Assembly: GCF_900100695.1 (NCBI RefSeq)
Contig: NZ_FNCF01000006.1
Coordinates: forward strand, 186,001 to 250,000
Direction: 5' to 3'
Source: Klenkia brasiliensis
GTDB taxonomy: Bacteria; Actinomycetota; Actinomycetes; Mycobacteriales; Geodermatophilaceae
Length of the DNA: 64,000 bases
The position numbers and the translations under genes are program-made. Below are positions 9,153 through 63,224 of this stretch, one piece after another. The notes beneath the pieces were generated by a model. That model worked only from the letters and a program-made list of their open reading frames with translations. It searched no databases and was not told where the DNA came from. The first letter of the stretch is position 1. Every line of letters starts with the position of its first letter.

Positions 9153-9166
9153 GTTCCACGTGGAAC
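9153..9166. promoter_or_regulatory. parS-like palindrome, copy 1 (exact)
   Basis: GTTCCACGTGGAAC is a perfect 14-bp palindrome, extended by one more complementary base on each side (C...G). It differs by one base from the Streptomyces parS consensus GTTTCACGTGGAAC. It lies between divergent nei-like and RNB genes, ending 9 bp before the RNB GTG. A transcription-factor operator is the alternative, but other copies lie inside coding sequence. Confidence 0.7.
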
Positions 9167-9175
9167 GGTGACGGG

Positions 9176-10564
9176 GTGGCTCGCGTGCTGAGGGTGTCCG
9201 GTCCGCTCGACTTCGTCGCGGTGCGCGAGGAGTTCGACGTCCCGCAGGGGTTCCCGGCCGACGTCCTCGCCGAGGCCGACCGGGTGGCGGCCAACCCCCC
9301 GCTGCCCGACCACGACGCCACCGACCTGCCGCTGGTCACCCTCGACCCGCCCGGCGCCCGCGACCTCGACCAGGCGGTGCACCTGGCCCGCACGGACAGC
9401 GGCTACCGGGTCTCCTACGCCATCGCCGACGTCGGCGCATTCGTCCCGCTCGGCAGCGCGCTGGACGCCGAGGCCCGCCGGCGCGGCCAGACCGTCTACT
9501 GCCCCGACGGCCGCACCCCGCTGCACCCGCCGCAGCTGAGCGAGGGCGCGGCCAGCCTGCTGCCCGGCCAGCTCCGCCCGGCCGCTCTGTGGACGATCGA
9601 CCTGGACGCCGACGGCGAGGTGACCGCGGTGGACCTGCGCCGGGCCCGGGTGCGCAGCCGCGCCCAGCTGGACTACGAGTCGGTCGGCGAGCAGCTGCCC
9701 GTCGAGCTGGAGCTGCTGCCCGAGATCGGCCGGCTGCTGCAGGCCCGGGCCCGCGACCGGGGCGCGATCGAGCTGGGCACGCCGTCCCAGGAGGTCGAGC
9801 CCGGGCCCGACGGCGGCTGGACCGTCGTGTTCCGCGGCCAGAGCGACGTCGAGGGCTGGAACGCGCAGATCTCCCTGCTCACCGGCCGCTGCGCCGCGCG
9901 GCTGATGCTCGACGGCGGCGTGGGCATCCTGCGCACCCTGCCGCCGCCGGACCCCGGCGCCGTGGCCGCGCTCCGGCGGCTGGCGCCCGGCCTCGGGGTG
10001 GCCTGGCCCGACGGCGCGACCCCGGGCGAGGTCGTCGCCACCCTGGACCCGGCCCGGCCCCGGCACGCCGCCTTCCTCGACGCCGCGACCTCGCTGCTGC
10101 GCGGCGCCGGCTACACCGCCTTCGACGGCGAGCCCCCGGCGCAGCCCGGGCACGGCGGTGTCGGCGGGCCCTACGCCCACGTCACCGCCCCGCTGCGCCG
10201 GCTGGTCGACCGGTTCGGCACCGAGGTCTGCCTCGCCCTCGCCGCGGGTGCCCAGCCGTCGGCGGAGCTGCGGGCCGCGCTGCCGGAGCTCACCGACCTG
10301 ATGGCTGCCTCCGACCGGCGCACCCACGCCGTCGAGCGGGCCGTCGTCGACCTGGTCGAGGCCACCCTGCTGGCCGACCGGGTGGGCGAGGTGTTCGATG
10401 CGGTCGTGCTCGACGCCGACGACGACCGCGCCACGGTGGTGCTGGTGGACCTGGCCGTGCAGGGCCGTGCCGACGGCCGGTTCGAGGCCGGCGAGGTCGC
10501 CCGGGTGCGGGTCGAGGTCGCCGACCCGGCCACCCGCACGGTCCGCTTCGGGGACGCCCGGTGA
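9176..10564 (+). CDS. RNB-domain exoribonuclease (RNase II/R family)
   Basis: This 462-residue protein is dominated by an RNB catalytic domain. The metal-binding aspartates are seen in TLDPPGARDLDQAVHL (about 57-72), followed by YAIADVGAFV and RRRGQTVYCPDGRTPLHPP. YAHVTAPLRRLVDRFG near 332-347 is the conserved RNB C-terminal signature. Cold-shock domains and a full S1 domain are missing, as in the compact actinobacterial subfamily, so it is much shorter than RNase R. The GTG at 9176 begins just after the parS-like palindrome; GTGs at 9185 and 9194 are alternatives. The stop overlaps the aminotransferase start (GTGA). Confidence 0.88.
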   Translation: MARVLRVSGPLDFVAVREEFDVPQGFPADVLAEADRVAANPPLPDHDATDLPLVTLDPPGARDLDQAVHLARTDSGYRVSYAIADVGAFVPLGSALDAEARRRGQTVYCPDGRTPLHPPQLSEGAASLLPGQLRPAALWTIDLDADGEVTAVDLRRARVRSRAQLDYESVGEQLPVELELLPEIGRLLQARARDRGAIELGTPSQEVEPGPDGGWTVVFRGQSDVEGWNAQISLLTGRCAARLMLDGGVGILRTLPPPDPGAVAALRRLAPGLGVAWPDGATPGEVVATLDPARPRHAAFLDAATSLLRGAGYTAFDGEPPAQPGHGGVGGPYAHVTAPLRRLVDRFGTEVCLALAAGAQPSAELRAALPELTDLMAASDRRTHAVERAVVDLVEATLLADRVGEVFDAVVLDADDDRATVVLVDLAVQGRADGRFEAGEVARVRVEVADPATRTVRFGDAR

Positions 10565-11721
10565 GCCTGCTCGCCCAGCGCCTGCAGGGCTTCGGGACGA
10601 CGGTGTTCGCCGAGATGAGCGCCCTGGCGGTGGCCACCGGCTCGGTCAACCTCGGGCAGGGCTTCCCCGACACCCCCGGCCCGGCCGAGGTGCTGGACGT
10701 CGCCCGCGCGGCCATCGGCACCGACCTCGACCAGTACCCGCCCGGCCCCGGCCTGCCGGTGCTGCGCGAGGCGGTCGCCGCCCACGTGCAGCGCTTCCGC
10801 GGCCTGTCCTACGACCCGGCCACCGAGGTGCTGGTCACCGCCGGGGCCACCGAGGCGCTGGCCGGCGCGCTGCTGGGGCTGCTGGACCCCGGCGACGAGG
10901 TCGTGGTCTTCGAGCCCCTCTACGACAGCTACGCCGCCTGCATCTCGATGGCCGGCGGCGTCGTCGTCCCGGTGCCGCTGCGGCCCCCGCCACCCGGGGA
11001 GGCCGGCCGGTGGACCTTCGATCCCGCGCAGCTGCGGGCCGCGGTGACCCCCCGCACCAAGCTGGTGCTGCTCAACACCCCGCACAACCCGACCGGCAAG
11101 GTGTTCGACCGGGCCGAGCTGGAGCTGGTCGCCGACGTCGTCCGCGAGCACGACCTGGTGGCGCTGACCGACGAGGTCTACGAGCACCTGGTCTTCACCG
11201 GAGCGCGGCACGTGTCGCTGGCGGAGCTGCCCGGCATGCGCGAGCGCACGCTGGTGGTCAGCAGCGGCGGCAAGACGTTCTCCACCACCGGCTGGAAGGT
11301 CGGCTGGGTGTGCGGCCCGGCCGAGCTGGTGACCTGCGTGCGGACGGCGAAGCAGTTCCTCACCTACGTCAACGCCGGCCCGTTCCAGCCGGCCATCGCC
11401 GCCGGGCTCGGCCTGCCCGACGCGTTCTTCGCCCGGGTCGCCGCCGACCTGGAGCACCAGCGCGACCTGCTCGTCGCCGGGCTCGCCGAGGCCGGGCTGC
11501 CGGTGATCAGCCCGGAGGCCACCTACTTCGCCACCGTGCGGGTCGACGGGGACGGGCTCGCCTTCTGCCGCGAGCTGCCGCACCGGGTCGGGGTGGTCGC
11601 CGTCCCCATGTCGGCGTTCTACCTGGCCCAGCACGCCGAGCTGGGCCGCGACCTGGTCCGGTTCGCCTTCTGCAAGCGGCCCGAGGTGCTCGCCGAGGCC
11701 GTCCGGAGGCTGACCGCATGA
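10561..11721 (+). CDS. PLP-dependent aminotransferase class I/II (KAT/YbdL-like)
   Basis: This 386-residue fold-type I aminotransferase shows NLGQGFPD (30-37), NTPHNPTGK (about 178-186), DEVYEHLVF and the PLP lysine in SSGGKTFSTTGWKVGW. The pattern matches the kynurenine/glutamine/methionine transaminases (E. coli YbdL; also some DapC proteins). The next gene is an omega-amidase, the partner needed to pull glutamine transamination forward, so a methionine-salvage or glutamine-transaminase role is the best inference. It starts GTG, overlapping the RNB stop, and ends in an ATGA overlap with the amidase. Confidence 0.88.
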   Translation: MSLLAQRLQGFGTTVFAEMSALAVATGSVNLGQGFPDTPGPAEVLDVARAAIGTDLDQYPPGPGLPVLREAVAAHVQRFRGLSYDPATEVLVTAGATEALAGALLGLLDPGDEVVVFEPLYDSYAACISMAGGVVVPVPLRPPPPGEAGRWTFDPAQLRAAVTPRTKLVLLNTPHNPTGKVFDRAELELVADVVREHDLVALTDEVYEHLVFTGARHVSLAELPGMRERTLVVSSGGKTFSTTGWKVGWVCGPAELVTCVRTAKQFLTYVNAGPFQPAIAAGLGLPDAFFARVAADLEHQRDLLVAGLAEAGLPVISPEATYFATVRVDGDGLAFCRELPHRVGVVAVPMSAFYLAQHAELGRDLVRFAFCKRPEVLAEAVRRLTA

Positions 11722-12479
11722 GGGTGGCCGTCGTCCAGCACGACATCGTCTGGGAGGACCGGGCGGCCAACCACGCCCGGCTGGCCGGGCTGGTCGACCG
11801 CGCGGTGGGCGCCGGCGGTGAGCTGGTGCTGCTGAGCGAGACCTTCTCCACCGGGTTCTCCATGCGGCACGGCATCGGCGAGCCCGAGGGCGGGTCGTCG
11901 GCGCAGTGGCTGGCCGAGCAGGCCGCCCGGCACGGCGTCTGGGTGGGCGGTTCCAGCGCCGAGGTCGCCGCCGACGACCCGCGGCCCGCCAACTCCTTCG
12001 TGCTGGCCGGTCCCGACGGCACGGTGCACCGCTACCGCAAGCTGCACCCGTTCACCCACACCGGTGAGCACGAGTACTTCCGGGCCGGCACCACCCCGGT
12101 GACCGTGCAGGTCGGCGACCTGCGGGTGAGCCTGTTCGTCTGCTACGACCTGCGCTTCGCCGACGAGTTCTGGGCCCTCGCCCCGGACACCGACGTCTAC
12201 CTGGTGCCGGCCAACTGGCCCGCCGCCCGCCGGCTGCACTGGCAGACCCTGCTGCAGGCCCGGGCGATCGAGAACCAGGCCTACGTCGTCGGCTGCAACC
12301 GGGTGGGCACCGCCGGCGACGGCACCGAGCACGCCGGCGACAGCCGCATCATCAGCCCGCTCGGCGAGCTGCTGGCCACCGCGGCGGGCGGGGAGACCGT
12401 GCTGGTGGCCGATGTCGACCCGGCCGAGGTCGCCCGGGTGCGCGAGCGGTTCCGCTTCCTGCAGGACCGGCGCCCCTAG
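11718..12479 (+). CDS. Omega-amidase of the nitrilase superfamily (YafV/Nit2-like)
   Basis: This 253-residue carbon-nitrogen hydrolase has an intact Glu-Lys-Cys triad: E41 (LLSETFSTGF), K108 (YRKLHPF) and C142 (VCYDLRF). The GEHEYFRAG segment after the lysine is typical of omega-amidases that hydrolyse alpha-ketoglutaramate or alpha-ketosuccinamate. Coupling with the upstream aminotransferase would close the glutamine transaminase/omega-amidase cycle and release ammonia and 2-oxoglutarate. The ATG overlaps the aminotransferase stop. It is convergent with the antiporter gene, overlapping by 4 bp. Confidence 0.9.
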   Translation: MRVAVVQHDIVWEDRAANHARLAGLVDRAVGAGGELVLLSETFSTGFSMRHGIGEPEGGSSAQWLAEQAARHGVWVGGSSAEVAADDPRPANSFVLAGPDGTVHRYRKLHPFTHTGEHEYFRAGTTPVTVQVGDLRVSLFVCYDLRFADEFWALAPDTDVYLVPANWPAARRLHWQTLLQARAIENQAYVVGCNRVGTAGDGTEHAGDSRIISPLGELLATAAGGETVLVADVDPAEVARVRERFRFLQDRRP

Positions 12480-14095
12480 TCCTCGGGCTGGACGCCGACC
12501 AGGCGGACCTCCTCGGCGTCCAGCTGGGCCATCACCCGGCGCAGCACCAGGTCGTCGATGGCGTGCAGGTCGCGCAGCCGGACCACGGCGTCCCGCTTGT
12601 CGGCCAGCAGCGCCAGCCGCAGCCGCCGCTCGGACTCCGCCTCGGCCAGCACCGCCTTCTTCGCCGCGCGGTGGTCGGGGTCGGTCACCCGGCCGTCGCT
12701 GAGCACCTGGGTCAGGTGCAGCTGCCGCTCCCGGGCCTCGTGGGCCTCCCGCACCCGGGCCACCACGGCCTCGGGGACGCCGAGCTCGGCGGCCCGCACG
12801 TCCAGCGCGGCCTGCGCGGCACCCAGGGCCTCCCGCTGCGCCAGCAGCTCCTCCTGCGCCTCCGCCGGGTCGGGCTGCAGCCGGGAGAAGCGGATGACCG
12901 CCGGCAGGGTGAGCCCCTGCACCACCAGCAGCACGACGATGACGCCGAAGGTGACCATCAGCAGCAGGTCCCGGCCCTCCAGCGGCCCGCCGGCCGCCGT
13001 CGTCGTGGGGACGGCGAGGGCCGCCGCGAGCGACACGGCCCCGCGGAAGCCGGCCCACTGGCCGGGCAGCCGACCGCGGAACCCCACCCGGCGCAGCCGC
13101 TGCGCCGGCCGCCGGTCCAGGGCCCGGATGACGTAGGGCAGCGTGTTGCCCCAGACCAGCCGGGTGCCGGCCACCGTGAGGGCGACCCACAGCGTGGCCA
13201 CCACCCCGGTCCAGATCTCCGCCGCGCTGCGGCCCTCGACCACCGCGTGCAGCTCCAGCCCGACCAGCACGAACAGCGACCCGTTGAGCAGGAAGGTGGT
13301 CAGCGACCAGAACCCGGCGGCCTGCACCCGGGCGCTGGGTGAGATGACCCGGGTGGCGATCTGGGTGAGCGTCAGCCCGCAGGTGACCACCGCGACCACG
13401 CCCGAGGCGTGCAGCAGCTCGGCGGGCAGGTAGGCCACGAACGGGGTCAGGACGCCGACCACGTTCTCCAGCCGGACGTCGGTCAGCCGCCGGCGCAGCT
13501 CGGTGACCGCGAAGGCCAGCGCCAGCCCGACCGCGATCCCGCCGGCGTAGGAGGCCACCAGCCGCCAGGCCACCCCGCCGGGCCCGACGTCCAGCGTGCC
13601 CACCGCCACCCCGACCGCGACGCCGAAGACCACCAGCGCGGTGCCGTCGTTGACCAGGCTCTCCGCCCGCAGCAGGGTGCGCGCCCGGCGCGGCAGCAGG
13701 CCGGCGACCGTGGCGATGGCCGTGGCGTCGGTGGGCGCGAGCACCGCGCCGAGCACGAACGCCATCGGCCAGGACAGGCCCAGCGCGTGCCCGACGACCG
13801 CGACCGTGCCGGCGGTGACCAGCACCAGGCCGACCGACATCAGGCTGATCACCCGCAGGTCCGCCCGGATCTGGCGCAGCGAGATGGTCAGCGACTCCCA
13901 GTACAGCAGCGCCGGGAGGAAGAGGAACAGGACGACGTCGGGGGGCATCTCCACCCCGCCGACGCCGGGCAGGAACCCCACGACGGTGCCCAGGGCGAGC
14001 AGCACCAGCGGCGGCGGGAGCCGGACCCAGCGCGCCAGCAGGGTGCCGAGGAGGACCAGGACACCGACGACCACCACGACCTCGAGCGCGTGCAC
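12476..14095 (-). CDS. CPA1-family Na+/H+ antiporter
   Basis: This 539-residue protein has about 12 membrane segments up to residue 400. The ion-binding region is LAPTDATAIATVAG (about 120-133), with a second conserved stretch ESLVNDGTALVVF (about 144-156). GFRGAVSLAAALAVP near 350 is the cytoplasmic-side CPA1 motif. A cytoplasmic tail of about 120 residues rich in Ala, Glu and Arg is predicted helical. It should exchange Na+ or K+ for protons at the plasma membrane. The GTG start is preceded by a strong GAGGGGAAGG. It may be co-transcribed with the EEP gene 17 bp upstream. Confidence 0.92.
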   Translation of the reverse strand: MHALEVVVVVGVLVLLGTLLARWVRLPPPLVLLALGTVVGFLPGVGGVEMPPDVVLFLFLPALLYWESLTISLRQIRADLRVISLMSVGLVLVTAGTVAVVGHALGLSWPMAFVLGAVLAPTDATAIATVAGLLPRRARTLLRAESLVNDGTALVVFGVAVGVAVGTLDVGPGGVAWRLVASYAGGIAVGLALAFAVTELRRRLTDVRLENVVGVLTPFVAYLPAELLHASGVVAVVTCGLTLTQIATRVISPSARVQAAGFWSLTTFLLNGSLFVLVGLELHAVVEGRSAAEIWTGVVATLWVALTVAGTRLVWGNTLPYVIRALDRRPAQRLRRVGFRGRLPGQWAGFRGAVSLAAALAVPTTTAAGGPLEGRDLLLMVTFGVIVVLLVVQGLTLPAVIRFSRLQPDPAEAQEELLAQREALGAAQAALDVRAAELGVPEAVVARVREAHEARERQLHLTQVLSDGRVTDPDHRAAKKAVLAEAESERRLRLALLADKRDAVVRLRDLHAIDDLVLRRVMAQLDAEEVRLVGVQPED

Positions 14096-14112
14096 GGGGT
14101 CGATCCTTCCCC

Positions 14113-15066
14113 TCAGACCGGCGGCAGCACCAGTTCCGCCGCCAGCGCGCGGTGGTCGCTGCCGGGCAGGTCGTGCACCTCGAAGGAGGCCACGCCGATC
14201 CGGCGGTCGGCCAGCACGTGGTCCAGGGTCAGCCGGGGCTGCGGGCGGCCCTCCGGCGTCCAGGTGTGCACCAGCGAGCGGCCGGTGCGGGCACCGGCGT
14301 CGGCGTACCCCCGGGCCAGCAGCCGGCGGTAGGTGGCGTGGTCGGGGGTGGCGTTGAAGTCACCGGCCAGCACCCGCAGCACGTCGCCGCCGGCCGCGGG
14401 CAGCTGCGCCATCTCCCGCTCCCACCGGCGGGTGCGCCGCGTGGTCACCGGCGGGTCGGTGTGCACCGCGACGACCTCCAGGTCCGGACCGCCGGGCACG
14501 GCCAGCCGGACGACGGGCTGCTCGAACCGGCCGGGTGCACCCGACCGCCCGAGCACCTCCAGCCGGGTCCACACCGCACCGCCCGCGGCCGGCGGCGCAC
14601 CGGGCCGGTGCCCGCGCACGTGCTCGCTGGGCAGCAGGTCGGCCAGCCCGGCATCCCGGAACCGGCGGTCGGCGTCCGGGGTGAGCTCGACCAGGCAGAG
14701 GACGTCGGCGTCGAAGGACCGCACCAGCTCCACCAGGACGGCGGGGTCGGCGCGGCCGTGCAGCAGGTTCGCCGACACGATCCGCACCCGGGGCCCCGCC
14801 CCGGGCGGGGGCGCGGCCACGGTGCGGCCTGCGGTCGCCCCGGCCAGCACACCCGCGGCGGCCGCGGCGACCACGGTGGCCAGCGGGGCCCGCCGGGCCG
14901 CGGCGACCCCCAGCGGCAGCACCGCCGACGCCGCGGCGTAGGGGACGAAGGACATGCCGGGGACCAGGGGCCAGCCCCGCTCGGTGCCGGTGGCGCGCAA
15001 CCCGGCGCACACCGCCCACGGGACGGTCAGGGCCAGGGGCAGCAGCTCGCGCCGGACGGTGCTCAT
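14113..15066 (-). CDS. Membrane-anchored endonuclease/exonuclease/phosphatase-family protein
   Basis: This 317-residue protein begins with about three membrane segments (residues 8-85) and ends with an EEP domain. Catalytic motifs are visible: SANLLHG, LVELT, VAVHTDPP, LAGDFNATPDH and the terminal GSDHRALAAEL. EEP domains cleave phosphodiesters in nucleic acids, inositol phosphates or sphingomyelin; membrane-anchored actinobacterial forms probably act outside the cell. The substrate is unknown. The ATG at 15066 gives the natural membrane start. It diverges from the CYTH-CHAD gene. Confidence 0.87.
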   Translation of the reverse strand: MSTVRRELLPLALTVPWAVCAGLRATGTERGWPLVPGMSFVPYAAASAVLPLGVAAARRAPLATVVAAAAAGVLAGATAGRTVAAPPPGAGPRVRIVSANLLHGRADPAVLVELVRSFDADVLCLVELTPDADRRFRDAGLADLLPSEHVRGHRPGAPPAAGGAVWTRLEVLGRSGAPGRFEQPVVRLAVPGGPDLEVVAVHTDPPVTTRRTRRWEREMAQLPAAGGDVLRVLAGDFNATPDHATYRRLLARGYADAGARTGRSLVHTWTPEGRPQPRLTLDHVLADRRIGVASFEVHDLPGSDHRALAAELVLPPV

Positions 15067-15104
15067 CGCCGCCCATGATCGACCACGGGGTTGCCGTTCA
15101 CCTG

Positions 15105-15129
15105 GCTGAGGTAGAAAGCCCACCTCAGC
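15105..15129. promoter_or_regulatory. Inverted repeat in the CYTH-CHAD leader
   Basis: GCTGAGGT (15105-15112) and ACCTCAGC (15122-15129) form a perfect 8-bp inverted repeat with a 9-bp spacer. It ends 28 bp before the CYTH-CHAD start and lies between two divergent genes. It could be an operator or an RNA hairpin; no regulator gene is adjacent. Confidence 0.4.
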
Positions 15130-15157
15130 GGATCAACCGAGCAGGAGTGGGTGCAGC

Positions 15158-16933: not shown

Positions 16934-16943
16934 GACTGGCACC

Positions 16944-18170: not shown

Positions 18171-18171
18171 G

Positions 18172-18747: not shown

Positions 18748-18794
18748 CCGGGCATCGTCGCAGGTGGCGGGCCTGACCGCGGCCCCGACAGGCC

Positions 18795-19400: not shown

Positions 19401-19419
19401 GCCGGCCCTCCTGGGCTCT

Positions 19420-19434
19420 GGAACGGAGTGTTCC
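19420..19434. promoter_or_regulatory. Operator-like inverted repeat upstream of tetR
   Basis: GGAAC and GTTCC arms are separated by 5 bp, and the repeat ends 20 bp upstream of the TetR start at 19400. The region is AT-richer than its surroundings, as promoters here are. This is a candidate autoregulatory TetR site. Confidence 0.4.
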
Positions 19435-19494
19435 GGAATGCTAACCACCGATGGGTGCACGACGGAACCGTCCGGCAACCCGTCCATTCGTCAT

Positions 19495-19508: not shown

Positions 19509-19531
19509 TTGCGATCGAGTACCTTTCGCAC

Positions 19532-20269: not shown

Positions 20270-20304
20270 GCTGTGCCGCAGGTCGCCGTCCTACCGTCGT
20301 CGTC

Positions 20305-39889: not shown

Positions 39890-39903
39890 GTTCCACGTGG
39901 AAC
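39890..39903. promoter_or_regulatory. parS-like palindrome, copy 2 (exact)
   Basis: GTTCCACGTGGAAC is a perfect palindrome, flanked by C on the left and CG on the right. It lies in the 40-bp gap between cinA and the SRPBCC gene, 22 bp before the latter's ATG. Confidence 0.7.
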
Positions 39904-48580: not shown

Positions 48581-50227
48581 ATGGACGGGCACCCGAGGAC
48601 GGCGGACGGCCTGCTGCGGCGGGCGCTGCGCCGGCACCCGCGCGAGCTCGGGGCCGCCACCGTGCTGCTGTCGCTGCACCAGGCGTGCGAGGCGCTGGTC
48701 CCGGTGGCCATCGGCGTGACCATCGACCGGGCGGTCGCCACCGGCTCGGTGCCGGCGCTGCTGGCCTGCCTGGCGGCCACGGCGCTGCTGTTCGTCGTGC
48801 TCTCCCAGGCCTACCGGTACGGGGCCCGGCACGTGGTCACCGGCTGGTGGACCGAGACGCACCGGCTGCGGGTGGAGGTGGCCGCCCGGGTGCTCGACCC
48901 GCACGGCCTGCGCGGTGCGCCCCCGGCCGGGGAGCTGCTGAGCACCGCGACCGACGACGCCGAGCGGGCCGGCCGGGTGGTCGAGGCCGCCTCGCTGGTG
49001 GTGGCCGGGACGACCGCGCTGGTGGTGTCGGCCTTCGGGCTGCTGGCGGTCAGCGTGCCGCTGGGCGTCGGCGTGCTGCTCGGCGCGCCGCTGCTGGTCG
49101 GGCTGCTGCAGCTGCTGGGCCCGTGGCTGACCCGGCGCACCGCCACCCAGCAGGCCGACGTCGCCCGCGCCGCCGGCCTGGCCGCCGACCTGGTCCGCGG
49201 CACCCGGGTGCTGCGCGGGATCCGCGCCGAGGACGCCGCCGCCGACCGCTACCGGCGGGCCAGCCGTGCCGCGCTGGCCTCCACGCTGCGCTCGGCGGGC
49301 GCCATCGGTGCCTACCGCGGTGCGACCGTGCTGGGCAGCGGGTTGTTCGGCGTCGCCGTCGCCGGGGTGGCCGGTGCGCTGGCGCTGGACGGGGCGATGA
49401 CGGTCGGCCAGCTGGTGACCGTCGTGGGGCTGGCCCAGTTCCTCGCCGAGCCGGTCGGCCTGCTCGGCTTCGCCGGCCAGAAGGTGGCCGAGGCCCGCGC
49501 GTCGGCGGCCCGGCTGGTCGCCGTGCTCACCGCCGAGCCGCTGCACCCGGTGGGCGCCGCACCGCGGCCGGGCCCGGGGGCGCTCGCGGTGCCCGCAGCC
49601 GGGTTCCACGTGGAACCCGGCGAGGTGCTCGGGGTGGTGGCACCCGACCCCGCCGACGCCGAGTCGCTGGTGGCCCTGCTCGGCCTGCGCCGGCCGGTCA
49701 CGCCCGGGGAGCTGCTGCTGGACGGCGCGGACGCCGCCGCGCTGGACCCGGCCGCGGTCCGCGCCCGGGTGCTGGTCGAGCCGCACGCGGTGGTGCTGTT
49801 CGAGGGCACCCTGCGCACCGCGCTGGACCCGGCCGGCGCCGCCGACGACACCGCGCTGACCCGCGCCCTGGCCGCGGCCGGCGCCGCCGACCTGCCCGAC
49901 CTGGACCTGCCGGTGGCCGACCGCGGCCGGTCGCTGTCCGGCGGGCAGCGGCAGCGGGTCGGCCTGGCCCGCGCCCTGCTGCGGGCCCCGGACGTGCTGG
50001 TGCTGCACGACCCGACCACGGCGGTCGACGCGGTCACCGAGGCCGACGTCGCCGACGGCCTGCGCGGGCTGCGGGCCGGCCGGACGACGGTGCTGGTCAC
50101 CAGCAGCCCGGCGCTGCTGGGCCGCTGCGACCGGGTCGTGGTGCTGCGCGGCGGGTCGGTCGAGGCGGTCGGCACGCACGCCGAGCTGACCGGGCACGCC
50201 GGCTACGCCGCGGCGGTGCTGCGGTGA
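48581..50227 (+). CDS. ABC exporter subunit with degenerate ATP site (lost Walker A)
   Basis: This 548-residue half-transporter has six membrane segments (about 20-300) and a nucleotide-binding domain. The Walker A region near 350 reads APDPADAES rather than GxxGxGKS, so it lacks the lysine. The catalytic Glu after Walker B is Pro (D477-P478), and the H-loop His is replaced (VTSSPALL). The signature LSGGQ (452-456) is intact. It can therefore only supply the signature half of one working ATP site. It pairs with the next gene, whose defects are the complement. A parS-like palindrome is embedded at residues 341-346. Confidence 0.93.
   Translation: MDGHPRTADGLLRRALRRHPRELGAATVLLSLHQACEALVPVAIGVTIDRAVATGSVPALLACLAATALLFVVLSQAYRYGARHVVTGWWTETHRLRVEVAARVLDPHGLRGAPPAGELLSTATDDAERAGRVVEAASLVVAGTTALVVSAFGLLAVSVPLGVGVLLGAPLLVGLLQLLGPWLTRRTATQQADVARAAGLAADLVRGTRVLRGIRAEDAAADRYRRASRAALASTLRSAGAIGAYRGATVLGSGLFGVAVAGVAGALALDGAMTVGQLVTVVGLAQFLAEPVGLLGFAGQKVAEARASAARLVAVLTAEPLHPVGAAPRPGPGALAVPAAGFHVEPGEVLGVVAPDPADAESLVALLGLRRPVTPGELLLDGADAAALDPAAVRARVLVEPHAVVLFEGTLRTALDPAGAADDTALTRALAAAGAADLPDLDLPVADRGRSLSGGQRQRVGLARALLRAPDVLVLHDPTTAVDAVTEADVADGLRGLRAGRTTVLVTSSPALLGRCDRVVVLRGGSVEAVGTHAELTGHAGYAAAVLR
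49603..49616. promoter_or_regulatory. parS-like palindrome, copy 3 (exact, inside coding sequence)
   Basis: GTTCCACGTGGAAC lies inside the ABC gene and is extended to an 18-bp palindrome by GG and CC on either side. It encodes part of GFHVEPG. An operator inside a gene would be unusual, whereas parS sites are commonly found inside genes. Confidence 0.7.
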
Positions 50228-53171: not shown

Positions 53172-53179
53172 CGGCGAAG

Positions 53180-53209
53180 CGTTGCACCTGGAGCGGCCAG
53201 AACGCAACG
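53180..53209. promoter_or_regulatory. Inverted repeat between the Lrp gene and ddaH
   Basis: CGTTGC (53180-53185) and GCAACG (53204-53209) are perfect inverted arms separated by 18 bp. They lie 8 bp upstream of the Lrp start and 64 bp upstream of ddaH. This is a candidate Lrp operator controlling both directions. Confidence 0.45.
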
Positions 53210-53273
53210 GATCGACGGTACGGCACAACGGCCGGGGATCGACTGCGTGGGCGCGCGGCCCGACCATGGATCG

Positions 53274-55156: not shown

Positions 55157-55173
55157 CCCGTCCGGGTGGCGCG

Positions 55174-55252
55174 CCCTCTTCTGTTGTGCGCAATGAGGTG
55201 CCACACTCCACGCAGTCGGGTGCACCGGGTTCGAGAAGAGGGTCCGGTGCAC
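55174..55252. other. Two interleaved perfect stems in the ocd-lysR convergent gap
   Basis: CCCTCTTCT (55174-55182) pairs with AGAAGAGGG (55234-55242), and GTGCACCGG (55220-55228) pairs with CCGGTGCAC (55244-55252). Both are perfect 9-bp stems. The order is A-B-A'-B', so only one can form at a time on one RNA. They may terminate transcription from the two convergent genes or form a small RNA. Confidence 0.6.
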
Positions 55253-55267
55253 ACGGCCCGCGGTGGC

Positions 55268-56164: not shown

Positions 56165-56172
56165 CCCGGATG

Positions 56173-56185
56173 CATACCAGGTATG
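56173..56185. promoter_or_regulatory. LysR operator-like palindrome
   Basis: CATACC and GGTATG flank a single A, giving a perfect 13-bp palindrome. It lies 8 bp upstream of the lysR GTG and about 105 bp from the M20 start. LysR sites of the form ATAC-N-GTAT are common. Confidence 0.6.
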
Positions 56186-56289
56186 GAGCGACCCACGGAT
56201 GACGCTCTTCTGCCTGGCCCCCCGCAGCGGCCACGATGTCGCCGCCGGGGCGGCAGGCGCGCCCGGGGGACGCTCGAGGAGAGGGCGAC

Positions 56290-57597
56290 ATGACCGCAGT
56301 GGCCGATCTGGTCGGTGTGCAGGACCGGGCGCTGTCCCGGGCCGAGCTCGCCGTGCTGGACGCGATCGACGAGCAGGGCGTGGTGGAGGACCTGGTCCGG
56401 TCGATCCGGGTGCCCAGCACCACCGGCTCGGACGCGGAGACCGAGGAGCAGCACCAGCAGGCGGCGGCGCTGACCCGGCTCGGCTTCGACGTCGACACCT
56501 GGGCGCTGGACCTGCCCGCGCTGGCCGCGCACCCGGACTTCCCGGGCACCGAGGCGCCGCGCACCGAGGGCGTCGGCGTGGTGGGCGTGCTCGGCCCTGC
56601 CGGGGTGCCGGCCCTGGTGCTGCAGGGGCACGTCGACGTCGTCCCCACCGGCGACCTGGGCAAGTGGGTGGACCGCGACCCGTTCAGCGGCGCGGTGCGC
56701 GGCGGCGCGGTGCACGGCCGCGGTGCCTGCGACATGAAGGCCGGCTGCGCGGTCAACCTGGGCGTGGCCCGGGCCCTCGCGGCGTCCGGGGTGCGGCTGG
56801 AGCGCCCGTTCGCGGTGCATTCCGTGGTCTCCGAGGAGGACGGCGGGCTGGGCGCGTTCGCGACGGTGGTCCGGGGGCACCGGGGCGAGGCCGCGGTGAT
56901 CACCGAGCCGACCAGCGGGCGGGTACTGGTGGCCAACGCCGGGGCGCTGACCTTCGAGCTCACCGTCGACGGCCGGGCCGCGCACGGCAGCACCCGGCTG
57001 GAGGGGCACAGCGCCGTGGAGGCGTTCCTGCCGGTGTTCGCCGCGCTCACCGAGCTGGAGCGGGAGCGCAACGCCGCGCCGCACCCGCTGTTCGCCGGCC
57101 AGCCGCTGCCCTACCCCATCTCGGTCGGCACGCTCCGCGCCGGTGACTGGGCCAGCAGCGTCCCCGACGTGCTGGTCGCCGAGGGCCGCATGGGCGTCCG
57201 GCTCGGCGAGGCACCGGAGGAGGCGCGGGCCGCACTGCGCCGCGCCCTGGACGACCTCGCCGCCGGTGACCCGTGGCTGCGCGACCACCCGGTGCGGCTG
57301 GCCTGGACCGGCGGCCAGTTCGCCAGCGGCCGGCTCGCCGAGGGCCACCCGCTGCTCGGCGAGGTCACCCGCGCGGTGCACGACGTCGAGGGCCGGACGG
57401 CGGCGGCCGCGGCGGCGCCCTACGGCAGCGACCTGCGGCTCTACACCGGTCTGAGCGGCATCCCGACGCTGCAGTACGGCCCCGGCGACGTCCGGTTCGC
57501 GCACGCCCCGCGGGAGCAGGTGCGCATCGAGGAGGTGCTGCGCACGACCCGCACCCTGGCCGTGCTCGCCGCGCGCCGCTGCGGCGCCCACCTCTGA
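56290..57597 (+). CDS. M20-family peptidase/deacylase (ArgE/DapE-like)
   Basis: The 435 residues are a metal-dependent M20 amidohydrolase. Metal ligands are seen in LQGHVDVVPTGD, ACDMKAGCAVNLG, SVVSEEDGGLG and the late PTLQYGPGDVRFAHAP. A lid domain (about 215-330) separates them. Relatives hydrolyse N-acetylornithine, succinyl-diaminopimelate or peptides. The ornithine-related neighbours make an N-acylated amino acid attractive, but this is inference. ATG at 56290 is preceded by GAGGAGAGGG, a strong site. It is controlled by the divergent LysR gene. Confidence 0.9.
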   Translation: MTAVADLVGVQDRALSRAELAVLDAIDEQGVVEDLVRSIRVPSTTGSDAETEEQHQQAAALTRLGFDVDTWALDLPALAAHPDFPGTEAPRTEGVGVVGVLGPAGVPALVLQGHVDVVPTGDLGKWVDRDPFSGAVRGGAVHGRGACDMKAGCAVNLGVARALAASGVRLERPFAVHSVVSEEDGGLGAFATVVRGHRGEAAVITEPTSGRVLVANAGALTFELTVDGRAAHGSTRLEGHSAVEAFLPVFAALTELERERNAAPHPLFAGQPLPYPISVGTLRAGDWASSVPDVLVAEGRMGVRLGEAPEEARAALRRALDDLAAGDPWLRDHPVRLAWTGGQFASGRLAEGHPLLGEVTRAVHDVEGRTAAAAAAPYGSDLRLYTGLSGIPTLQYGPGDVRFAHAPREQVRIEEVLRTTRTLAVLAARRCGAHL

Positions 57598-57620
57598 CGC
57601 CGGCGTGGGCGGGGCCGGCC

Positions 57621-58067
57621 TCAGCGCAGGTGGGTGACCACGGACTCGCCGGGCGGCACGGGGTGGCCGTGCGTGCACCGCACCTCGGCGACGACCTCCG
57701 CGCCGCACCCGGCGTGCGCCACGGCGATCGGGGGGCCGCCGGGGACGCCGGCGTGCGCGTCGCCCCACTGCCGCAGCGCGGTGATCACCGGGAGGAAGTC
57801 CAGCCCCGCTGGGGTCAGCCGGTACTCCTGCCGCACCCGCTGGCCCGGCTCGCGGTAGTCGGCGCGCGCGAGCAGCCCGGCGTCGACCAGCTCGGCCAGC
57901 CGCCGGGCGGTCATCGGCTCGCTGAGCCCGGTGCGGACGGCGAAGTCGGCGAACCGCCGGGTGCCCAGCGCCGCCTCGCGCAGCAGCAGCAGGGACGACC
58001 GGGACCCCACCAGGTCCAGGGTCGCCGCGATCGTGCAGTGCTCCCGGACCCCGGTCGGCGCGTCCAT
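57621..58067 (-). CDS. HxlR-family transcriptional regulator
   Basis: The 148 residues carry an HxlR winged helix: CTIAATLDLVGSRSSLLLLREAALG, RRFADFAVRTGLSEPMTARRLAELVDAGLL and the YRLTPAGLDFLPVI wing. HxlR proteins often control divergent exporters or oxidoreductases, and here the divergent gene is an MFS transporter. The ATG at 58067 is used; a GTG two codons upstream is possible. The perfect inverted repeat at 58090-58118 is its probable operator. Confidence 0.92.
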   Translation of the reverse strand: MDAPTGVREHCTIAATLDLVGSRSSLLLLREAALGTRRFADFAVRTGLSEPMTARRLAELVDAGLLARADYREPGQRVRQEYRLTPAGLDFLPVITALRQWGDAHAGVPGGPPIAVAHAGCGAEVVAEVRCTHGHPVPPGESVVTHLR

Positions 58068-58089
58068 CCCCACCTCGCTTGTGCGCAGT

Positions 58090-58118
58090 TGAGCCAGGTG
58101 TCATGGTGTGCTGGCTCA
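58090..58118. promoter_or_regulatory. HxlR operator-like inverted repeat
   Basis: TGAGCCAG (58090-58097) and CTGGCTCA (58111-58118) are perfect arms with a 13-bp spacer, 23 bp upstream of the hxlR start and 35 bp upstream of the MFS gene. It would let one HxlR dimer control both divergent genes. Confidence 0.6.
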
Positions 58119-58152
58119 TCCCCACTGTAGCCAGCCCGGCGGAGGTCGTCCC

Positions 58153-59565
58153 GTGCCCGAGCAGACCGACGTCGACCGCACCCGCCGGCGGACCCTGGCC
58201 ACCGCGGCCGGGTCCACCCTCCTCGTGCTCGCCGTCTTCGTCACCCCGCTCGGCACCGGCGTGCGGACGGCGACCGACTTCGGGGCCGGTCCCGGTGCGC
58301 AGGCCTGGCTGCTGTCCTCGATAAGCGTGGGGCTGGCCGCCGCGCTGCTCACCGCCGGGGTGCTCGCCGACGACGTGGGACGGCGCCGCGTGCTGGTCGC
58401 CGGGCTGGCCCTCGTCGCCGCCGGCGCCGCAGTGGCCGGCCTGGCGGGCGGCACCGTGCCCTTCGTGGTGGGCCGGCTGGTGCAGGGCGTGGGCGGCGCC
58501 GCGGTCCTGGCGGGTGCGCTCGGCGTCATCGGCCAGGTGTTCCCGCCGGGCCCGGACCGGGCGCGGGCGGCGGCGGTGTGGGGGGCCAGCGTCGGCGCGG
58601 GCACCGGGTTCGGCGGCGTCGCGACCGTGCTGCTCGACCACGGCACGCAGTGGCGGGTGACCTACCTGGTGACCGCGGTCGTCGGCACCGGCGTCGCCCT
58701 TGTCGCCCACCGCACCCTGCCCGGTGCCGTCCCCGCGCCCCGGCGCCGGCCCGACGTCGCCGGCGCGGTGCTGCTCGCCGCGGGCCTGTCCGCACTGCTC
58801 GCCGGCCTGGTGCAGTCGCGCAGCGCGTCCGGCCCGGCCGGCGTCGTCCTGCTGGTCGGGGGTGCCCTGCTGCTGGTCGCGTTCGCGGTCACCGAGCGGC
58901 GCAGCCCGGCGCCGATGATCGACCTGGCGCTGTTCGCCGCACCCGGCTTCCGGGCCGCGACCCTCGGCGCGCTGCTCACCGGCGGCGCGATGGTGGGGCT
59001 GGCGTCCTACCTGCCCTCGATGGTGCAGCGCGGCCTGGGCGCCTCGCTGCTGGCCGCCACGCTGCTGGTGCTGTTCTGGTCGGCGGTCAGCACGGCCACC
59101 TCGGTCGCGCTCCGCTGGCTGCCCGGTGTCGACGGCCGGCTGCTGCTGGCCGGCGCGCTGGTCGTGGCCGGGCTGGGCATGGCCGCCCTGGCCGCGGTCG
59201 GCACGGGGAGCTCCCCGGCGGTGCTGCTGCCCGGCCTGCTGGTCTACGGCATCGGCTACGGCGCAGCGAACGCGGCGCTGGGCCGGGAGGCGGTGGCCCA
59301 CGTGCCGGCCGAGCGGGCGGGGATGGGCAGCGGGGCCAACAACACCGCCCGCTACGTCGGCGCGGCGCTCGGGACGACGGCCGTGGTCCTCGTCGCCTCC
59401 GCGGCCGGTCCCGCCGGGACGGCTGCCGGCCAGCTCGCCGGCTGGGACCACGCCGCGCTGGGCGCCGCGGCGGTCGCCGTCCTCGGCGGGCTGGGGATCG
59501 CGCTGACCGGCCGCCGGGCCCGCCGAGCGGCGCCGACGCTGGTCAGCGGGCCGCGCGGCGGCTAG
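58153..59565 (+). CDS. MFS transporter (DHA2-like drug exporter)
   Basis: The 470 residues form about 14 membrane segments. The DHA motif near 70 is GVLADDVGRRRVLVAG, and LVQGVGGAAVLAGALG near 115 matches the GxxxGPxxG helix region. This places it in the 14-TMS drug:H+ antiporter group. It would export a toxic compound through the plasma membrane. The GTG at 58153 is preceded by GGAGG. Regulation by the divergent HxlR is inferred. Confidence 0.92.
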   Translation: MPEQTDVDRTRRRTLATAAGSTLLVLAVFVTPLGTGVRTATDFGAGPGAQAWLLSSISVGLAAALLTAGVLADDVGRRRVLVAGLALVAAGAAVAGLAGGTVPFVVGRLVQGVGGAAVLAGALGVIGQVFPPGPDRARAAAVWGASVGAGTGFGGVATVLLDHGTQWRVTYLVTAVVGTGVALVAHRTLPGAVPAPRRRPDVAGAVLLAAGLSALLAGLVQSRSASGPAGVVLLVGGALLLVAFAVTERRSPAPMIDLALFAAPGFRAATLGALLTGGAMVGLASYLPSMVQRGLGASLLAATLLVLFWSAVSTATSVALRWLPGVDGRLLLAGALVVAGLGMAALAAVGTGSSPAVLLPGLLVYGIGYGAANAALGREAVAHVPAERAGMGSGANNTARYVGAALGTTAVVLVASAAGPAGTAAGQLAGWDHAALGAAAVAVLGGLGIALTGRRARRAAPTLVSGPRGG

Positions 59566-59574
59566 CTTCCCGCC

Positions 59575-59781
59575 ATGACGACCTTCTGGATCGTGGTGGG
59601 CGTGCTGGTGGTGGCCGGGCTGGCCGCCATGCTGGTGCACGACCGGCGGGCGACGATGCGGGGTGCCCGGCTGAACCCGGACATCGGCTCCGACGTCGGC
59701 CGGGGGCACGCGGACCCGGACGCCTACCGCGGGTCGCAGGGCAGCACGCCCAACGGGTGGGGGATGGGCAGCGGGAACTAG
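59575..59781 (+). CDS. Small membrane protein, 68 residues
   Basis: One N-terminal membrane segment (residues 4-20) is followed by DRRATMRGARLNPDIGSDVG and a Gly/Ser/Asn-rich tail. No family is recognised. The start is 9 bp after the MFS stop, so it may be co-transcribed with the exporter. Its last 4 bp overlap the stop of the convergent M23 gene. Codon use and position support a real gene, but the role is unknown. Confidence 0.65.
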   Translation: MTTFWIVVGVLVVAGLAAMLVHDRRATMRGARLNPDIGSDVGRGHADPDAYRGSQGSTPNGWGMGSGN

Positions 59782-60926
59782 CCGCAGGAGCCCACCGAGA
59801 TGCCGTGCGAGGTCAGCCACGGCACCGGGTTGCGGCGGTCGGCGTACAGCCCGCCGTAGTGGGTCTCCACGTGCACGTGCGGGCCGGTGGACTGGCCGCG
59901 GTTGCCCACGGTCGCGATCTGCTGCCCGGCCGACACGACCTGGCCCGGTCGCACGGTGAAGCTGTCGACGTGCCCGTAGAGGGTGACCACGCCGTCGGGG
60001 TGCTGCACGTAGACCGCCTGGCCGAACCCGCTCGCGGGGCCGGCGTCCAGGACCACGCCGCCCTCGGGGGCGTAGATCGGCGTGCCGATGGGCGCGGCGA
60101 CGTCGATGCCGAAGTGCGTCGTCCCCCAGCGCGAGCCGTAGCAGGAGGTGACCCGGCCGTCGACGAGCGAGCCGTCGCCGGTGCTGCTCACGCTGGCGGC
60201 GGCGACCGACGCCTGCGCCGCGGCGGCCGCGGCCGCCGCCGCGTCCTCCACCCCCTGCGCCTCCAGCAGCGCGGTCTGCGCGGCCAGCAGCTCGGCGTCG
60301 AGATCGGCCTTCTGCGCGGTGACCGCGTCGAAGGACTCCTGGGCGGCGGCCAGCTGCTGCTGGGCCGCGGCGTCGGACTCCGCGGCGGCCTGCGCGGCGG
60401 CGTCCAGCCGGCCGACGGCCTCCTGCGCTGCCGCGTCCGCGGCCTGCTCCTGGTCCCGCTGCGCCTCGACGGCGTCCAGCCGGCCGGTGCGGTCCAGCCC
60501 GAGCTGCTCCATGGTGGCCGCGCGCTGCAGCACGTCCTCGGGGCTCTCGGCGTCCAGCAGCACCTGCGCGGTGCCGAAGGTCTGCTGGCCCATGAACGCC
60601 TCGCGGCCCAGCGTGGCCACGTCGTCCTCGGCCACCTCGGTGGCGGCCTGTGCCTCGGCGAGCGCGGCCGCGGTGGCGGCCTGCGCCTCCTGCGCCGTCG
60701 TGAGCTCCTCCTGCGCGACGCGGTCGGCGTCGGCGGCGGCCTCGGCCAGCACCGTCGAGCGGGCCAGCTCCTCCTCCGCGGCGGCGACCAGGGCGGCGAC
60801 CCGGTCCACCTCGGCCTGCGCGGCGGCGACCGCGGCGGTGTCGGCGGGGGCGGCGGCGGCCGGCGGGGCCGCCGTGCCGAGAGCCAGGAGTGCCCCGAGC
60901 GCGAGGACGGCGAGCCGGGGACGCAT
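59778..60926 (-). CDS. Secreted M23-family peptidase with coiled-coil domain
   Basis: The 382 residues begin with a signal peptide ending near 26, continue with a long Ala/Glu-rich coiled coil (about 30-240), and end in an M23/LytM peptidase domain (about 260-380). Zinc ligands are seen in THFGID (H, D) and HVHVE. It cleaves peptidoglycan cross-links outside the cell. The coiled-coil-plus-LytM layout resembles RipA/NlpD-like septation hydrolases. It is separated from the RsbW-like gene by 70 bp. Confidence 0.92.
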   Translation of the reverse strand: MRPRLAVLALGALLALGTAAPPAAAAPADTAAVAAAQAEVDRVAALVAAAEEELARSTVLAEAAADADRVAQEELTTAQEAQAATAAALAEAQAATEVAEDDVATLGREAFMGQQTFGTAQVLLDAESPEDVLQRAATMEQLGLDRTGRLDAVEAQRDQEQAADAAAQEAVGRLDAAAQAAAESDAAAQQQLAAAQESFDAVTAQKADLDAELLAAQTALLEAQGVEDAAAAAAAAAQASVAAASVSSTGDGSLVDGRVTSCYGSRWGTTHFGIDVAAPIGTPIYAPEGGVVLDAGPASGFGQAVYVQHPDGVVTLYGHVDSFTVRPGQVVSAGQQIATVGNRGQSTGPHVHVETHYGGLYADRRNPVPWLTSHGISVGSCG

Positions 60927-60996
60927 CGGTCCGACGCTAACCGACGGTCACCGCCGATGTCACGGGTGGGTAACGGACCGATCCGTCACGCGGCCC

Positions 60997-61476
60997 TCAG
61001 GCGAGGCTGCCCCGGGGGGCCGGGGTGGCCCCGGGGACGGCGACGCCCGAGGTCAGGCGCGCCCACACGTGCTTGCGGCCGCCGTCGGCGGACCAGCCGT
61101 GGTCGACCGAGAGCTGCGCCACCATCGGCAGCCCCATGCCGCCCAGCGCCGGGTCGCGGTCGACCGCGGGCACCGGTGGCCGGTCGACCGCCTCGTCCGA
61201 CAGCGCCAGCACCCAGCCCTCGGCGGTGGCCACGATGACGGCCTCGACGGCGCCGCCGCCGTGCCGCAGCGCGTTGGAGGCCAGCTCCTCGAAGGCCAGC
61301 AGGAGCCCCTCGCGGGCGTCCTCGGTCGACGACGAGGTCAGCGACGGGTGCGCCAGGCGGGCGCGCAGGTCCATCCGCACGCGGGACGCGTCGTGCACGC
61401 TGGGGAGCTGCCAGCGCCACACGTCACCCGGGACGTCCGGGACCGGGGACTGCGGCCAGGCGGCTTCGGCGGGCAC
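60997..61476 (-). CDS. Anti-sigma-factor-like ATPase (RsbW/HATPase_c_2)
   Basis: The 159 residues have a GHKL ATPase fold: N box EELASNALRHG (about 64-74), G1 box region ALSDEA and G2 box GGMGLPMV (about 113-120). Such proteins are anti-sigma factors or kinase partners of PP2C/STAS modules. The SpoIIE-type phosphatase at 36.7 kb could belong to the same class of circuit, but a direct partner is not shown. GTG start; no sigma factor or STAS gene is adjacent. Confidence 0.85.
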   Translation of the reverse strand: MPAEAAWPQSPVPDVPGDVWRWQLPSVHDASRVRMDLRARLAHPSLTSSSTEDAREGLLLAFEELASNALRHGGGAVEAVIVATAEGWVLALSDEAVDRPPVPAVDRDPALGGMGLPMVAQLSVDHGWSADGGRKHVWARLTSGVAVPGATPAPRGSLA

Positions 61477-61577
61477 CCGCGCCCTCCCCTTCTCGGACGG
61501 TGTCGGTCAGGAACTGCGCCCATCCTCACCGACACCGCCGGGACGCGCAGCCGGAAGGCCCGGGGGAGACTTCCCGG

Positions 61578-63224
61578 GTGACGAGCGCCGGCCCGCTGCC
61601 CGACGACCTGGTGCGGCTGCGCAACCAGCTCGCCGCCGTCCCGTTCGCCCTCGACACCCCGGGCCGGGACGCCGCGGTCCGGGCGGTCCGCTCCGTGGTC
61701 GACCAGGTCGACGACCACCTGCTGCCGCGGCTGCGCGACGTCGACGCGCCGCTGCTCGTGGTGGTCGGCGGGTCGACGGGCGCGGGGAAGTCCACGCTGG
61801 TCAACAGCCTGCTGCAGGCCGAGGTGACCCGGGCCGGGGTGCTCCGGCCGACCACCCGCACCCCGGTGCTCGTCTGCGCCCCCGCCGACCGGGGTGCCTT
61901 CGCCGACGACCGGGTGCTGCCGGTCCAGGTCGAGGTGCACCCGGCGGTCCCCGAGGGCCTGGCGCTGGTCGACGCGCCGGACGTCGACAGCGTGGTGGAG
62001 GCCAACCGCGACCTCGCCGGCCAGCTGCTGTCGGCCGCGGACCTCTGGGTCTTCGTCACCACCGCGGCCCGCTACGCCGACGCCGTCCCGTGGGACCTGC
62101 TCCGCACCGCCGCCGAGCGCGGCACCGCGCTGGCCGTCGTCCTGGACCGGGTGCCGCCGGAGGCCACCCGCGAGGTCGCCACCGACCTGGCCGGGATGCT
62201 CGAGCGGGCCGGGCTCGCCCAGGCCCGGCTGTGGGTGGTCGAGGAGCGGCCGCTGGTCGGGGGGTTCCTGCCCGAGGACCAGGTGGCCCCGCTGCGCGGA
62301 TGGCTGCGCGGGCTCGCCGCCGACGCGGAGGCCCGGGCCGAGGTGGTGCGGCAGACCCTGGTCGGGGCGCTGGCCAGCCTGGACGACCGGGTGGCCGGCA
62401 TCGCCCGGGCCGTCGACGAGCAGGCCGCCGCGGCCGCGGCGCTGCGCACCGCCGCCGACGCCGCCTACGGCCGGGCCGCGACCGCCGTCGACGAGGGCGT
62501 GCGCAACGGCACCCTGCTGCGCGGTGAGGTGCTCGCCCGCTGGCAGGAGTTCGTCGGCACCGGGGAGTGGATGCGGTCGCTGCAGGCCGGCATCGGTCGG
62601 CTGCGGGACCGGGTCACCGCCGCGGTCACCGGCCGCCCCACGCCCGCCCAGGACCTGACCGGCGCGCTGGAGAGCGGGGTGGAGCGGCTGCTGTGCTCGG
62701 CCGCCGAGACCGCCGCCGAGGACACCGTCACCACCTGGCGCGGCCTGCCCGGGGGCGCCGCGGTGGTCGCCGGCCGCGAGCGGGAGCTGTCCACGGTGGG
62801 CCCGCAGTTCACCGAGGCCGCCGGGCGCACGGTGCGTGACTGGCAGGGCGCGGTGCTGGAGCTGGTCCGCGGCGAGGGCGCGGGCAAGCGGTCGCGGGCC
62901 CGGCTGCTGTCCTGGGGCGTGAACGGCGCCGGCGCCGTCGTCATGGTCGCGGTGTTCGCGCAGACCGCGGGCCTGTCCGGCGCCGAGGTCGCGGTCGCCG
63001 GCGGCACGACGGTGGTGGGCCAGCGGGTGCTGGAGGCGGTGTTCGGCGACTCCGCGGTGCGCCAGCTGGCCGAGCGGGCCCGCGGCGACCTCGACGAGCG
63101 GACCGGGGCGTTGCTCCACGTGGAACACCGGCGCTTCACCGAGCTGCTCGACGGTGCGGCCGGCCCCGACGACGCCGCCGGGCTGCGGGAGAGCGCCCGC
63201 ACCGTGGCGCGGGCCCGTGGCTGA
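61578..63224 (+). CDS. Dynamin-like GTPase with C-terminal hydrophobic segment
   Basis: The 548 residues have a P-loop GGSTGAGKST (about 67-76), a G2/G3 region VDAPDVDSV, and a long helical middle (about 250-450). A hydrophobic segment with GAVVMVAVFAQTAG lies near 450-490, as in membrane-binding bacterial dynamins. The next gene is a second GTPase, overlapping by 8 bp. Streptomyces DynA/DynB are such a pair, so a role in septation or membrane handling is inferred. GTG at 61578 is chosen; a parS-like near-copy lies inside the 3' region. Confidence 0.85.
   Translation: MTSAGPLPDDLVRLRNQLAAVPFALDTPGRDAAVRAVRSVVDQVDDHLLPRLRDVDAPLLVVVGGSTGAGKSTLVNSLLQAEVTRAGVLRPTTRTPVLVCAPADRGAFADDRVLPVQVEVHPAVPEGLALVDAPDVDSVVEANRDLAGQLLSAADLWVFVTTAARYADAVPWDLLRTAAERGTALAVVLDRVPPEATREVATDLAGMLERAGLAQARLWVVEERPLVGGFLPEDQVAPLRGWLRGLAADAEARAEVVRQTLVGALASLDDRVAGIARAVDEQAAAAAALRTAADAAYGRAATAVDEGVRNGTLLRGEVLARWQEFVGTGEWMRSLQAGIGRLRDRVTAAVTGRPTPAQDLTGALESGVERLLCSAAETAAEDTVTTWRGLPGGAAVVAGRERELSTVGPQFTEAAGRTVRDWQGAVLELVRGEGAGKRSRARLLSWGVNGAGAVVMVAVFAQTAGLSGAEVAVAGGTTVVGQRVLEAVFGDSAVRQLAERARGDLDERTGALLHVEHRRFTELLDGAAGPDDAAGLRESARTVARARG
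63113..63126. promoter_or_regulatory. parS-like near-palindrome, copy 4 (one mismatch, inside coding sequence)
   Basis: GCTCCACGTGGAAC differs from the exact palindrome at one base and encodes part of LLHVEHRR in the first dynamin-like gene. It may be a weaker or decayed site. Confidence 0.5.

What the first reader, a model, noticed from the sequence alone, without database searches (positions are those of the whole stretch)
9153..63126. Dispersed parS-like palindromes GTTCCACGTGGAAC
Three exact copies (9153-9166, 39890-39903, 49603-49616) and one single-mismatch copy (63113-63126) occur in 64 kb. With about 73% GC, independent-base chance for this 14-mer is roughly 1 in 10,000 per window for even one copy, so three is far beyond chance. 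The motif is one base away from the Streptomyces parS consensus. Two copies lie inside coding sequence, which suits ParB loading and not transcriptional control. The pstP-fhaB-fhaA-tRNA-Leu neighbourhood independently suggests the origin is close.
Basis: partly seen in the sequence, partly recalled or inferred. Interest (0 to 1): 0.8.

Follow-up and report, generated by a model that had tools for sequence, protein, structure and literature searches.

The report
Chromosome-segregation parS sites around oriC
The repeated palindrome is most likely the landing site (parS) of the bacterium's own chromosome-partitioning protein ParB, scattered around the replication origin; it is an ordinary bacterial centromere, written in a spelling already known from Pseudomonas and Myxococcus.

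Summary
In detail: three exact copies and one single-mismatch copy lie where stated; shuffles give 0.16 on average at up to two mismatches. The window is C11:186001-250000 of a 4.45 Mb genome whose nearest named ParB is from Klenkia taihuensis (96%). Genome-wide there are 22 sites with at most one mismatch (13 exact), all on two of 14 contigs; the reversed control has one. dnaA and parAB lie among them, and the window starts 29.5 kb past dnaA. In K. terrae, 22 of 22 lie within 501 kb of a 4.73 Mb contig, around parB/dnaA. Ten of the 14 exact/hybrid sites, including all three exact window sites, recur at the orthologous place. This is a chromosomal ParABS centromere. The CC/GG spelling is two bases (not one) from GTTTCACGTGAAAC and is the published parS of M. 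xanthus, P. aeruginosa and P. putida. Modestly new: Geodermatophilaceae appear to have moved to the CC spelling independently of other CC lineages, with 10-16 sites per genome in the window's genus. A ParB residue-174 rule failed a wider test; a residue-204 correlation is suggestive, not significant on a tree; high GC may contribute.

The parts
9153..9166 (.). parS, exact GTTCCACGTGGAAC, probably near the 3' end of ORF 8430-9191 (+), just before the RNase II-like coding region
   Evidence: exact K. terrae site 2230397 at the orthologous place; frame; RNase II domains
39890..39903 (.). parS, exact GTTCCACGTGGAAC, in the 22-bp gap between cinA (ends 39885) and the next ORF (starts 39908)
   Evidence: exact K. 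terrae site 2261588 at the orthologous place (the alignment has a gap at its last base)
49603..49616 (.). parS, exact GTTCCACGTGGAAC, inside an ABC-transporter ORF (48581-50227 +)
   Evidence: exact K. terrae site 2270342 at the orthologous place
63113..63126 (.). probable weaker parS, GCTCCACGTGGAAC, near the 3' end of a dynamin-like ORF (61500-63224 +); one of four copies of this variant in the genome, all on C11
   Evidence: no match among the 15 K. terrae loci compared, which hold 16 of its 22 sites

Best explanation
The palindromes are parS sites of the chromosomal ParABS system of a Klenkia-like actinobacterium. Inferred mechanism: a ParB dimer binds the palindrome, loads as a CTP-dependent clamp, slides onto neighbouring DNA and forms an origin-region complex that ParA pulls apart after replication and that may load SMC. 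Shown here: the sites, their clustering around dnaA/parAB, a parA-parB pair next to a parS doublet, and conservation in a second species. Inferred from knowledge of the family: ParB binding, clamp loading and segregation. The four sites in the window belong to an array of 13 exact, 1 hybrid and 8 further one-mismatch sites.
For: Genome-wide count and position; reversed control 0 at GTTYCACGTGRAAC and 1 at one mismatch. parB at C11:148924-149454, parA start at 150707, parS doublet at 150733 and 150768 in the gidB-parA gap, dnaA at 154837. Order rnpA, yidC, R3H protein, gidB, parA, parB / dnaA, dnaN, RecF/SMC-N protein. Length-share probability that 22 random sites all fall on C11+C6 is 5e-13. 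K. terrae: 22 of 22 within 501 kb of a 4.73 Mb contig. Ten of 14 exact/hybrid sites recur at orthologous places, flanks 81-89% identical. 112 of 112 family genomes carry GTTYCACGTGRAAC, control 0. A DNA carrying this 14-mer is bound by M. xanthus ParB in vitro (passages of PMC3899335), and it is listed as parS for P. aeruginosa and P. putida (passages of PMC7022226). Flanks of ten own sites are not alike (25+25 bp, mean pairwise identity 0.35), so the array is not a long repeat.
Against: No binding data. oriC itself was not pinned: DnaA-box-like words were few (4 with at most one mismatch in 17 kb) and GC skew in the stretches held showed no clean switch. The outer T and A of the 16-bp consensus occur together in only 1 of the 20 sites read. 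That C6 and C11 adjoin is inferred from order and orientation against K. terrae, not from an assembly.
Confidence: 0.96

Rival explanations
1. Operator of a transcription factor that recognises a CACGTG-centred palindrome.
For: The site is a perfect palindrome, and one window copy is intergenic.
Against: Probably three of four window copies lie in coding sequence; all 22 genomic copies are on the two contigs around dnaA/parAB; a doublet sits beside parA; the motif is a published parS elsewhere.
Confidence: 0.02
2. Chance or composition effect.
For: None found.
Against: Shuffles, reversed-pattern control and genome distribution, recurrence in relatives.
Confidence: 0.005
3. Part of a dispersed mobile or REP-like element.
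For: Many identical copies.
Against: Flanks are not alike (ten sites; four bases either side of 20 sites), and 10 of 14 copies sit at orthologous places in K. terrae.
Confidence: 0.005

Closest known systems
Chromosomal parS of Myxococcus xanthus (TGTTCCACGTGGAACG) and of Pseudomonas aeruginosa / P. putida (TGTTCCACGTGGAACA)
   Same: Identical 14-bp core; many copies near the origin (passages of PMC3899335 and PMC7022226).
   Different: Different phylum. M. xanthus packs 22 sites into a cluster of about 3 kb, whereas here 22 sites spread over an estimated 426 kb. The outer T/A is mostly absent.
Actinobacterial parS of the GTTTCACGTGAAAC type (Corynebacterium and Mycobacterium smegmatis in PMC7022226 Table 1; other genera)
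   Same: Several sites near parB; ParBs of the 69 other named loci are 56-68% identical to this one.
   Different: C instead of T at half-site position 4 on both sides. No exact GTTTCACGTGAAAC in this genome. 62 of 69 other named parB loci have at least one, against 0 of 11 Geodermatophilaceae loci (family membership of those genera is recalled).

Membership tests
chromosomal ParABS centromere (parS) | GTTNCACGTGNAAC-type palindrome | tested here: met
chromosomal ParABS centromere (parS) | Multiple copies confined to the origin region | tested here: met
   22 of 22 on the two contigs around dnaA/parAB in the own genome and within 501 kb in K. terrae; the origin is inferred from gene order
chromosomal ParABS centromere (parS) | Chromosomal parA and parB beside at least one site | tested here: met
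   Doublet in the gidB-parA gap
chromosomal ParABS centromere (parS) | Cognate ParB of the Spo0J/ParB family with its DNA-binding region | tested here: met
   TIGR00180 196.7 bits; matches 13 distinct solved sequences, among them Spo0J and ParBs (which organism each alignment is from was taken partly from recall). The GERR-type CTP motif is read in the translation; that name is recalled.
chromosomal ParABS centromere (parS) | 16-bp form with outer T and A (TGTT...AACA) | tested here: not met
   Only 1 of 20 sites read has both. I treat the 14-bp core as defining and the outer bases as variable; published consensuses quoted include 14-bp ones (M. smegmatis).
chromosomal ParABS centromere (parS) | Specific binding by cognate ParB | not testable with these tools
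   -

The most novel reading that the evidence does not exclude
Geodermatophilaceae replaced a whole dispersed centromere array, TT to CC at half-site position 4, in concert with changes in ParB's DNA-binding domain (S174, K188, T191 against nearest kin), and a partly readable protein-DNA code exists at that base: in other actinobacterial lineages R204K goes with the CC spelling. (Odds lowered from a first 0.25 after one search showed that these loci are also the most GC-rich compared, so base composition may share in the switch.)
Probability: 0.2. Interest if true: 0.55.

Novelty: new member of a known kind. Interest (0 to 1): 0.28.

Why it matters
It places the origin and centromere region of this genome and indicates that its family uses the CC spelling, so searches with the exact GTTTCACGTGAAAC consensus would miss these centromeres. 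The switch of many dispersed sites is a natural case for asking how a ParB and its many sites change together, or how far base composition alone can rewrite them.

Tried and rejected
ParB residue 174 as the cause of the CC spelling. In the 80 named loci it looked perfect (Ser in 11 of 11 Geodermatophilaceae loci and the own protein, Pro in 69 of 69 others). In ParBs from a wider sample it failed: among 50 TT-only genomes residue 174 is S/A/T/V in 41, and among 31 CC-only it is P in 14. It survives only as a local lead.

ParB residue 204 as the cause: K in 21 of 31 CC-only, 4 of 50 TT-only and 0 of 7 mixed genomes. Family f30 splits 4 K/CC against 4 R/TT; family f13 (4 K204, all TT) contradicts it. 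I asked for 90 genomes chosen by spelling and family; 88 gave a ParB (G168 and G262 gave none), so the Fisher value (2e-8) is not a fair probability. On a tree the test on pairs that differ in residue 204 uses 5 well-supported pairs (on average 3.2 the same way, 0 the other way, 1.8 no difference; median p 0.25), and the reverse test 9 pairs (median p 0.25). The window's genome has R204, so this does not explain its family. My notebook entry miscounts these K204 genomes; stands.

GC pressure as the sole cause: not excluded. Geodermatophilaceae loci have GC 0.724-0.746, the 69 others a median of 0.681; of the four others at 0.72 or more, three keep TT sites and two (one of them among those three) have CC sites.

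Locating oriC by DnaA boxes and GC skew gave nothing clear. Literature: the 14-mer occurs in 9 held papers (as a word of its own in 0), none on Geodermatophilaceae by title. 'parS sites' + Geodermatophilus gave one review (listing only). 'parS' + Geodermatophilaceae also matches words such as parsimony; only the 20 of 50 listed titles were seen.

Full report
OBSERVATION. Against 100 dinucleotide shuffles the window should hold 0.16 matches with up to two mismatches; it holds 4. The same four appear when GTTTCACGTGAAAC is sought with up to three mismatches, at distances 2, 2, 2 and 3, so the motif is two bases from that consensus.

WHERE THE WINDOW LIES. It is G000:C11:186001-250000 of a 4,451,590-base genome in 14 contigs. 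The closest named ParB in the one scan made is that of Klenkia taihuensis DSM 45962 (96%), then K. terrae (92%) (records very near the window may be left out there). dnaA is at C11:154837-156525, parB at C11:148924-149454. The order rnpA, yidC, an R3H-domain protein (jag-like), gidB, parA, parB on one strand and dnaA, dnaN and a RecF/SMC-N protein on the other is read from ORFs and Pfam matches. A second ParB-like match on C7 is below the family's cut-off.

GENOME-WIDE TEST. GTTYCACGTGRAAC occurs 14 times: 13 GTTCCACGTGGAAC and one hybrid GTTCCACGTGAAAC, none for the reversed control. With one mismatch allowed there are 22 sites, 19 on C11 and 3 on C6, none on the other 12 contigs; the control has one. 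The nine inexact sites are of three kinds only: GCTCCACGTGGAAC (4), GTTGCACGTGGAAC (4) and the hybrid (1), which suggests tolerated variants. C6 runs backwards against K. terrae, which fits its start adjoining the start of C11; the array then runs from about -249 to +178 kb of dnaA, 426 kb in all if there is no gap. In K. terrae IHUMI-26.3 the same search gives 14 exact and 8 one-mismatch sites, all from 1,841,662 to 2,342,664 of one contig of 4.73 Mb, with one site for the reversed control; its dnaA is near 2.192 Mb (from locus positions).

CONSERVATION. Of the own genome's 14 exact or hybrid sites, 10 align to a K. terrae site at the orthologous place while flanks are 81-89% identical. For nine, all 14 bases match in that alignment; at 225890 (window 39890) the aligner leaves a gap at the last base, although one search lists the K. 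terrae site as exact. The 15 K. terrae loci used were those brought in by the motif and hold 16 of its 22 sites, so places that have lost the site there cannot show. Of the other four own sites, three had no match among these loci and one an alignment that stops short of it. Of the eight other one-mismatch sites, none had a match covering the site among those tested (two were not in the stretches held). In the family, 112 of 112 genomes have at least one GTTYCACGTGRAAC: 5-16 in 103, 1-2 in the nine genomes of three genera g6-g8. The nine genomes of the window's genus have 10-16. That call lists individual sites only for the first genomes (G001 to part of G009); none of those listed is GTTTCACGTGAAAC.

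SPELLING. In named 10-21 kb loci around parB, 10 of 11 Geodermatophilaceae loci have a doublet (3 CC+CC, 7 CC+hybrid, no TT); the eleventh begins at parB and has none. Of 69 other actinobacterial loci, 62 have at least one TT/AA site and 4 have a CC/GG site. In a phylum sample of 296 genomes the CC spelling occurs in 45 and the TT spelling in 195; both occur in 11 (counted by hand from the two tables). The window's genome has the most CC sites of that sample (13; next 7); it is the only member of its family in it. On a tree of 89 ParBs (88 chosen by spelling and family, plus this one) the window's ParB sits beside TT genomes, and the spelling needs at least 13 changes, so it has changed more than once. 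Why it changed here is not settled. These loci are also the most GC-rich compared (median 0.739 against 0.681), so base composition may contribute; other loci at 0.72 or more are two with TT only, one mixed and one with CC and hybrid sites.

KNOWN OR NEW. The 14-mer is printed as the core of the parS of M. xanthus, with in-vitro binding (passages of PMC3899335), and of P. aeruginosa and P. putida (Table 1 passages of PMC7022226). In Caulobacter ParB, R173 and R204 are among the parS-contacting residues, and residues 173, 179, 184 and 201 set the parS/NBS preference at positions 1 and 6 (passages of PMC7383237); the terms 'position 4' and 'S174' occur 0 times in its main text. My residue numbers for this ParB are transferred by alignment of the conserved helix and the SAGHAR motif. 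The finding is therefore a new member of a known kind. The searches made of the held literature listed no description in Geodermatophilaceae by title, with the limits given under Tried and rejected.

Noticed in passing
G248, G394, G351, G404 (family f27, Actinomycetota); loci L121-L140, L231-L241: Extreme parS numbers: 114, 135, 110 and 28 exact GTTTCACGTGAAAC per 3.4-4.0 Mb genome, against 0-6 in most of the 296 genomes sampled and 8-33 in family f5. In G248 the 100 sites listed (of 114) run from 0.10 to 2.42 Mb of a 3.38 Mb contig and thicken around dnaA/parB near 2.29 Mb (12 in 20 kb). Many of those printed read ATGTTTCACGTGAAACAT, and several are doublets 34-36 bp apart. G394's contig length of 3,632,260 equals, from memory, that of Eggerthella lenta DSM 2243; not checked. 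'parS' + Eggerthella + ParB found 2 papers, neither on this by title.
   Followed up: partly
ParB loci L141-L229: R204K in ParB goes with the CC parS spelling (K in 21 of 31 CC-only and 4 of 50 TT-only genomes of a chosen sample), with a clean 4/4 split inside family f30 and a contradiction in f13; not significant on independent pairs.
   Followed up: partly
C11:150733-150781 of the own genome; named loci L026-L034, L074: Upstream of parB (in the gidB-parA gap in the own genome) Geodermatophilaceae carry a parS doublet whose starts are 25-36 bp apart, in 7 of 10 loci one CC/GG site plus one hybrid site; a kept asymmetric pair might control parAB expression or loading.
   Followed up: no
C7:47594-47941 of the own genome (L012): A second, weaker ParB-like match below the family cut-off (55.4 bits).
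   Followed up: no
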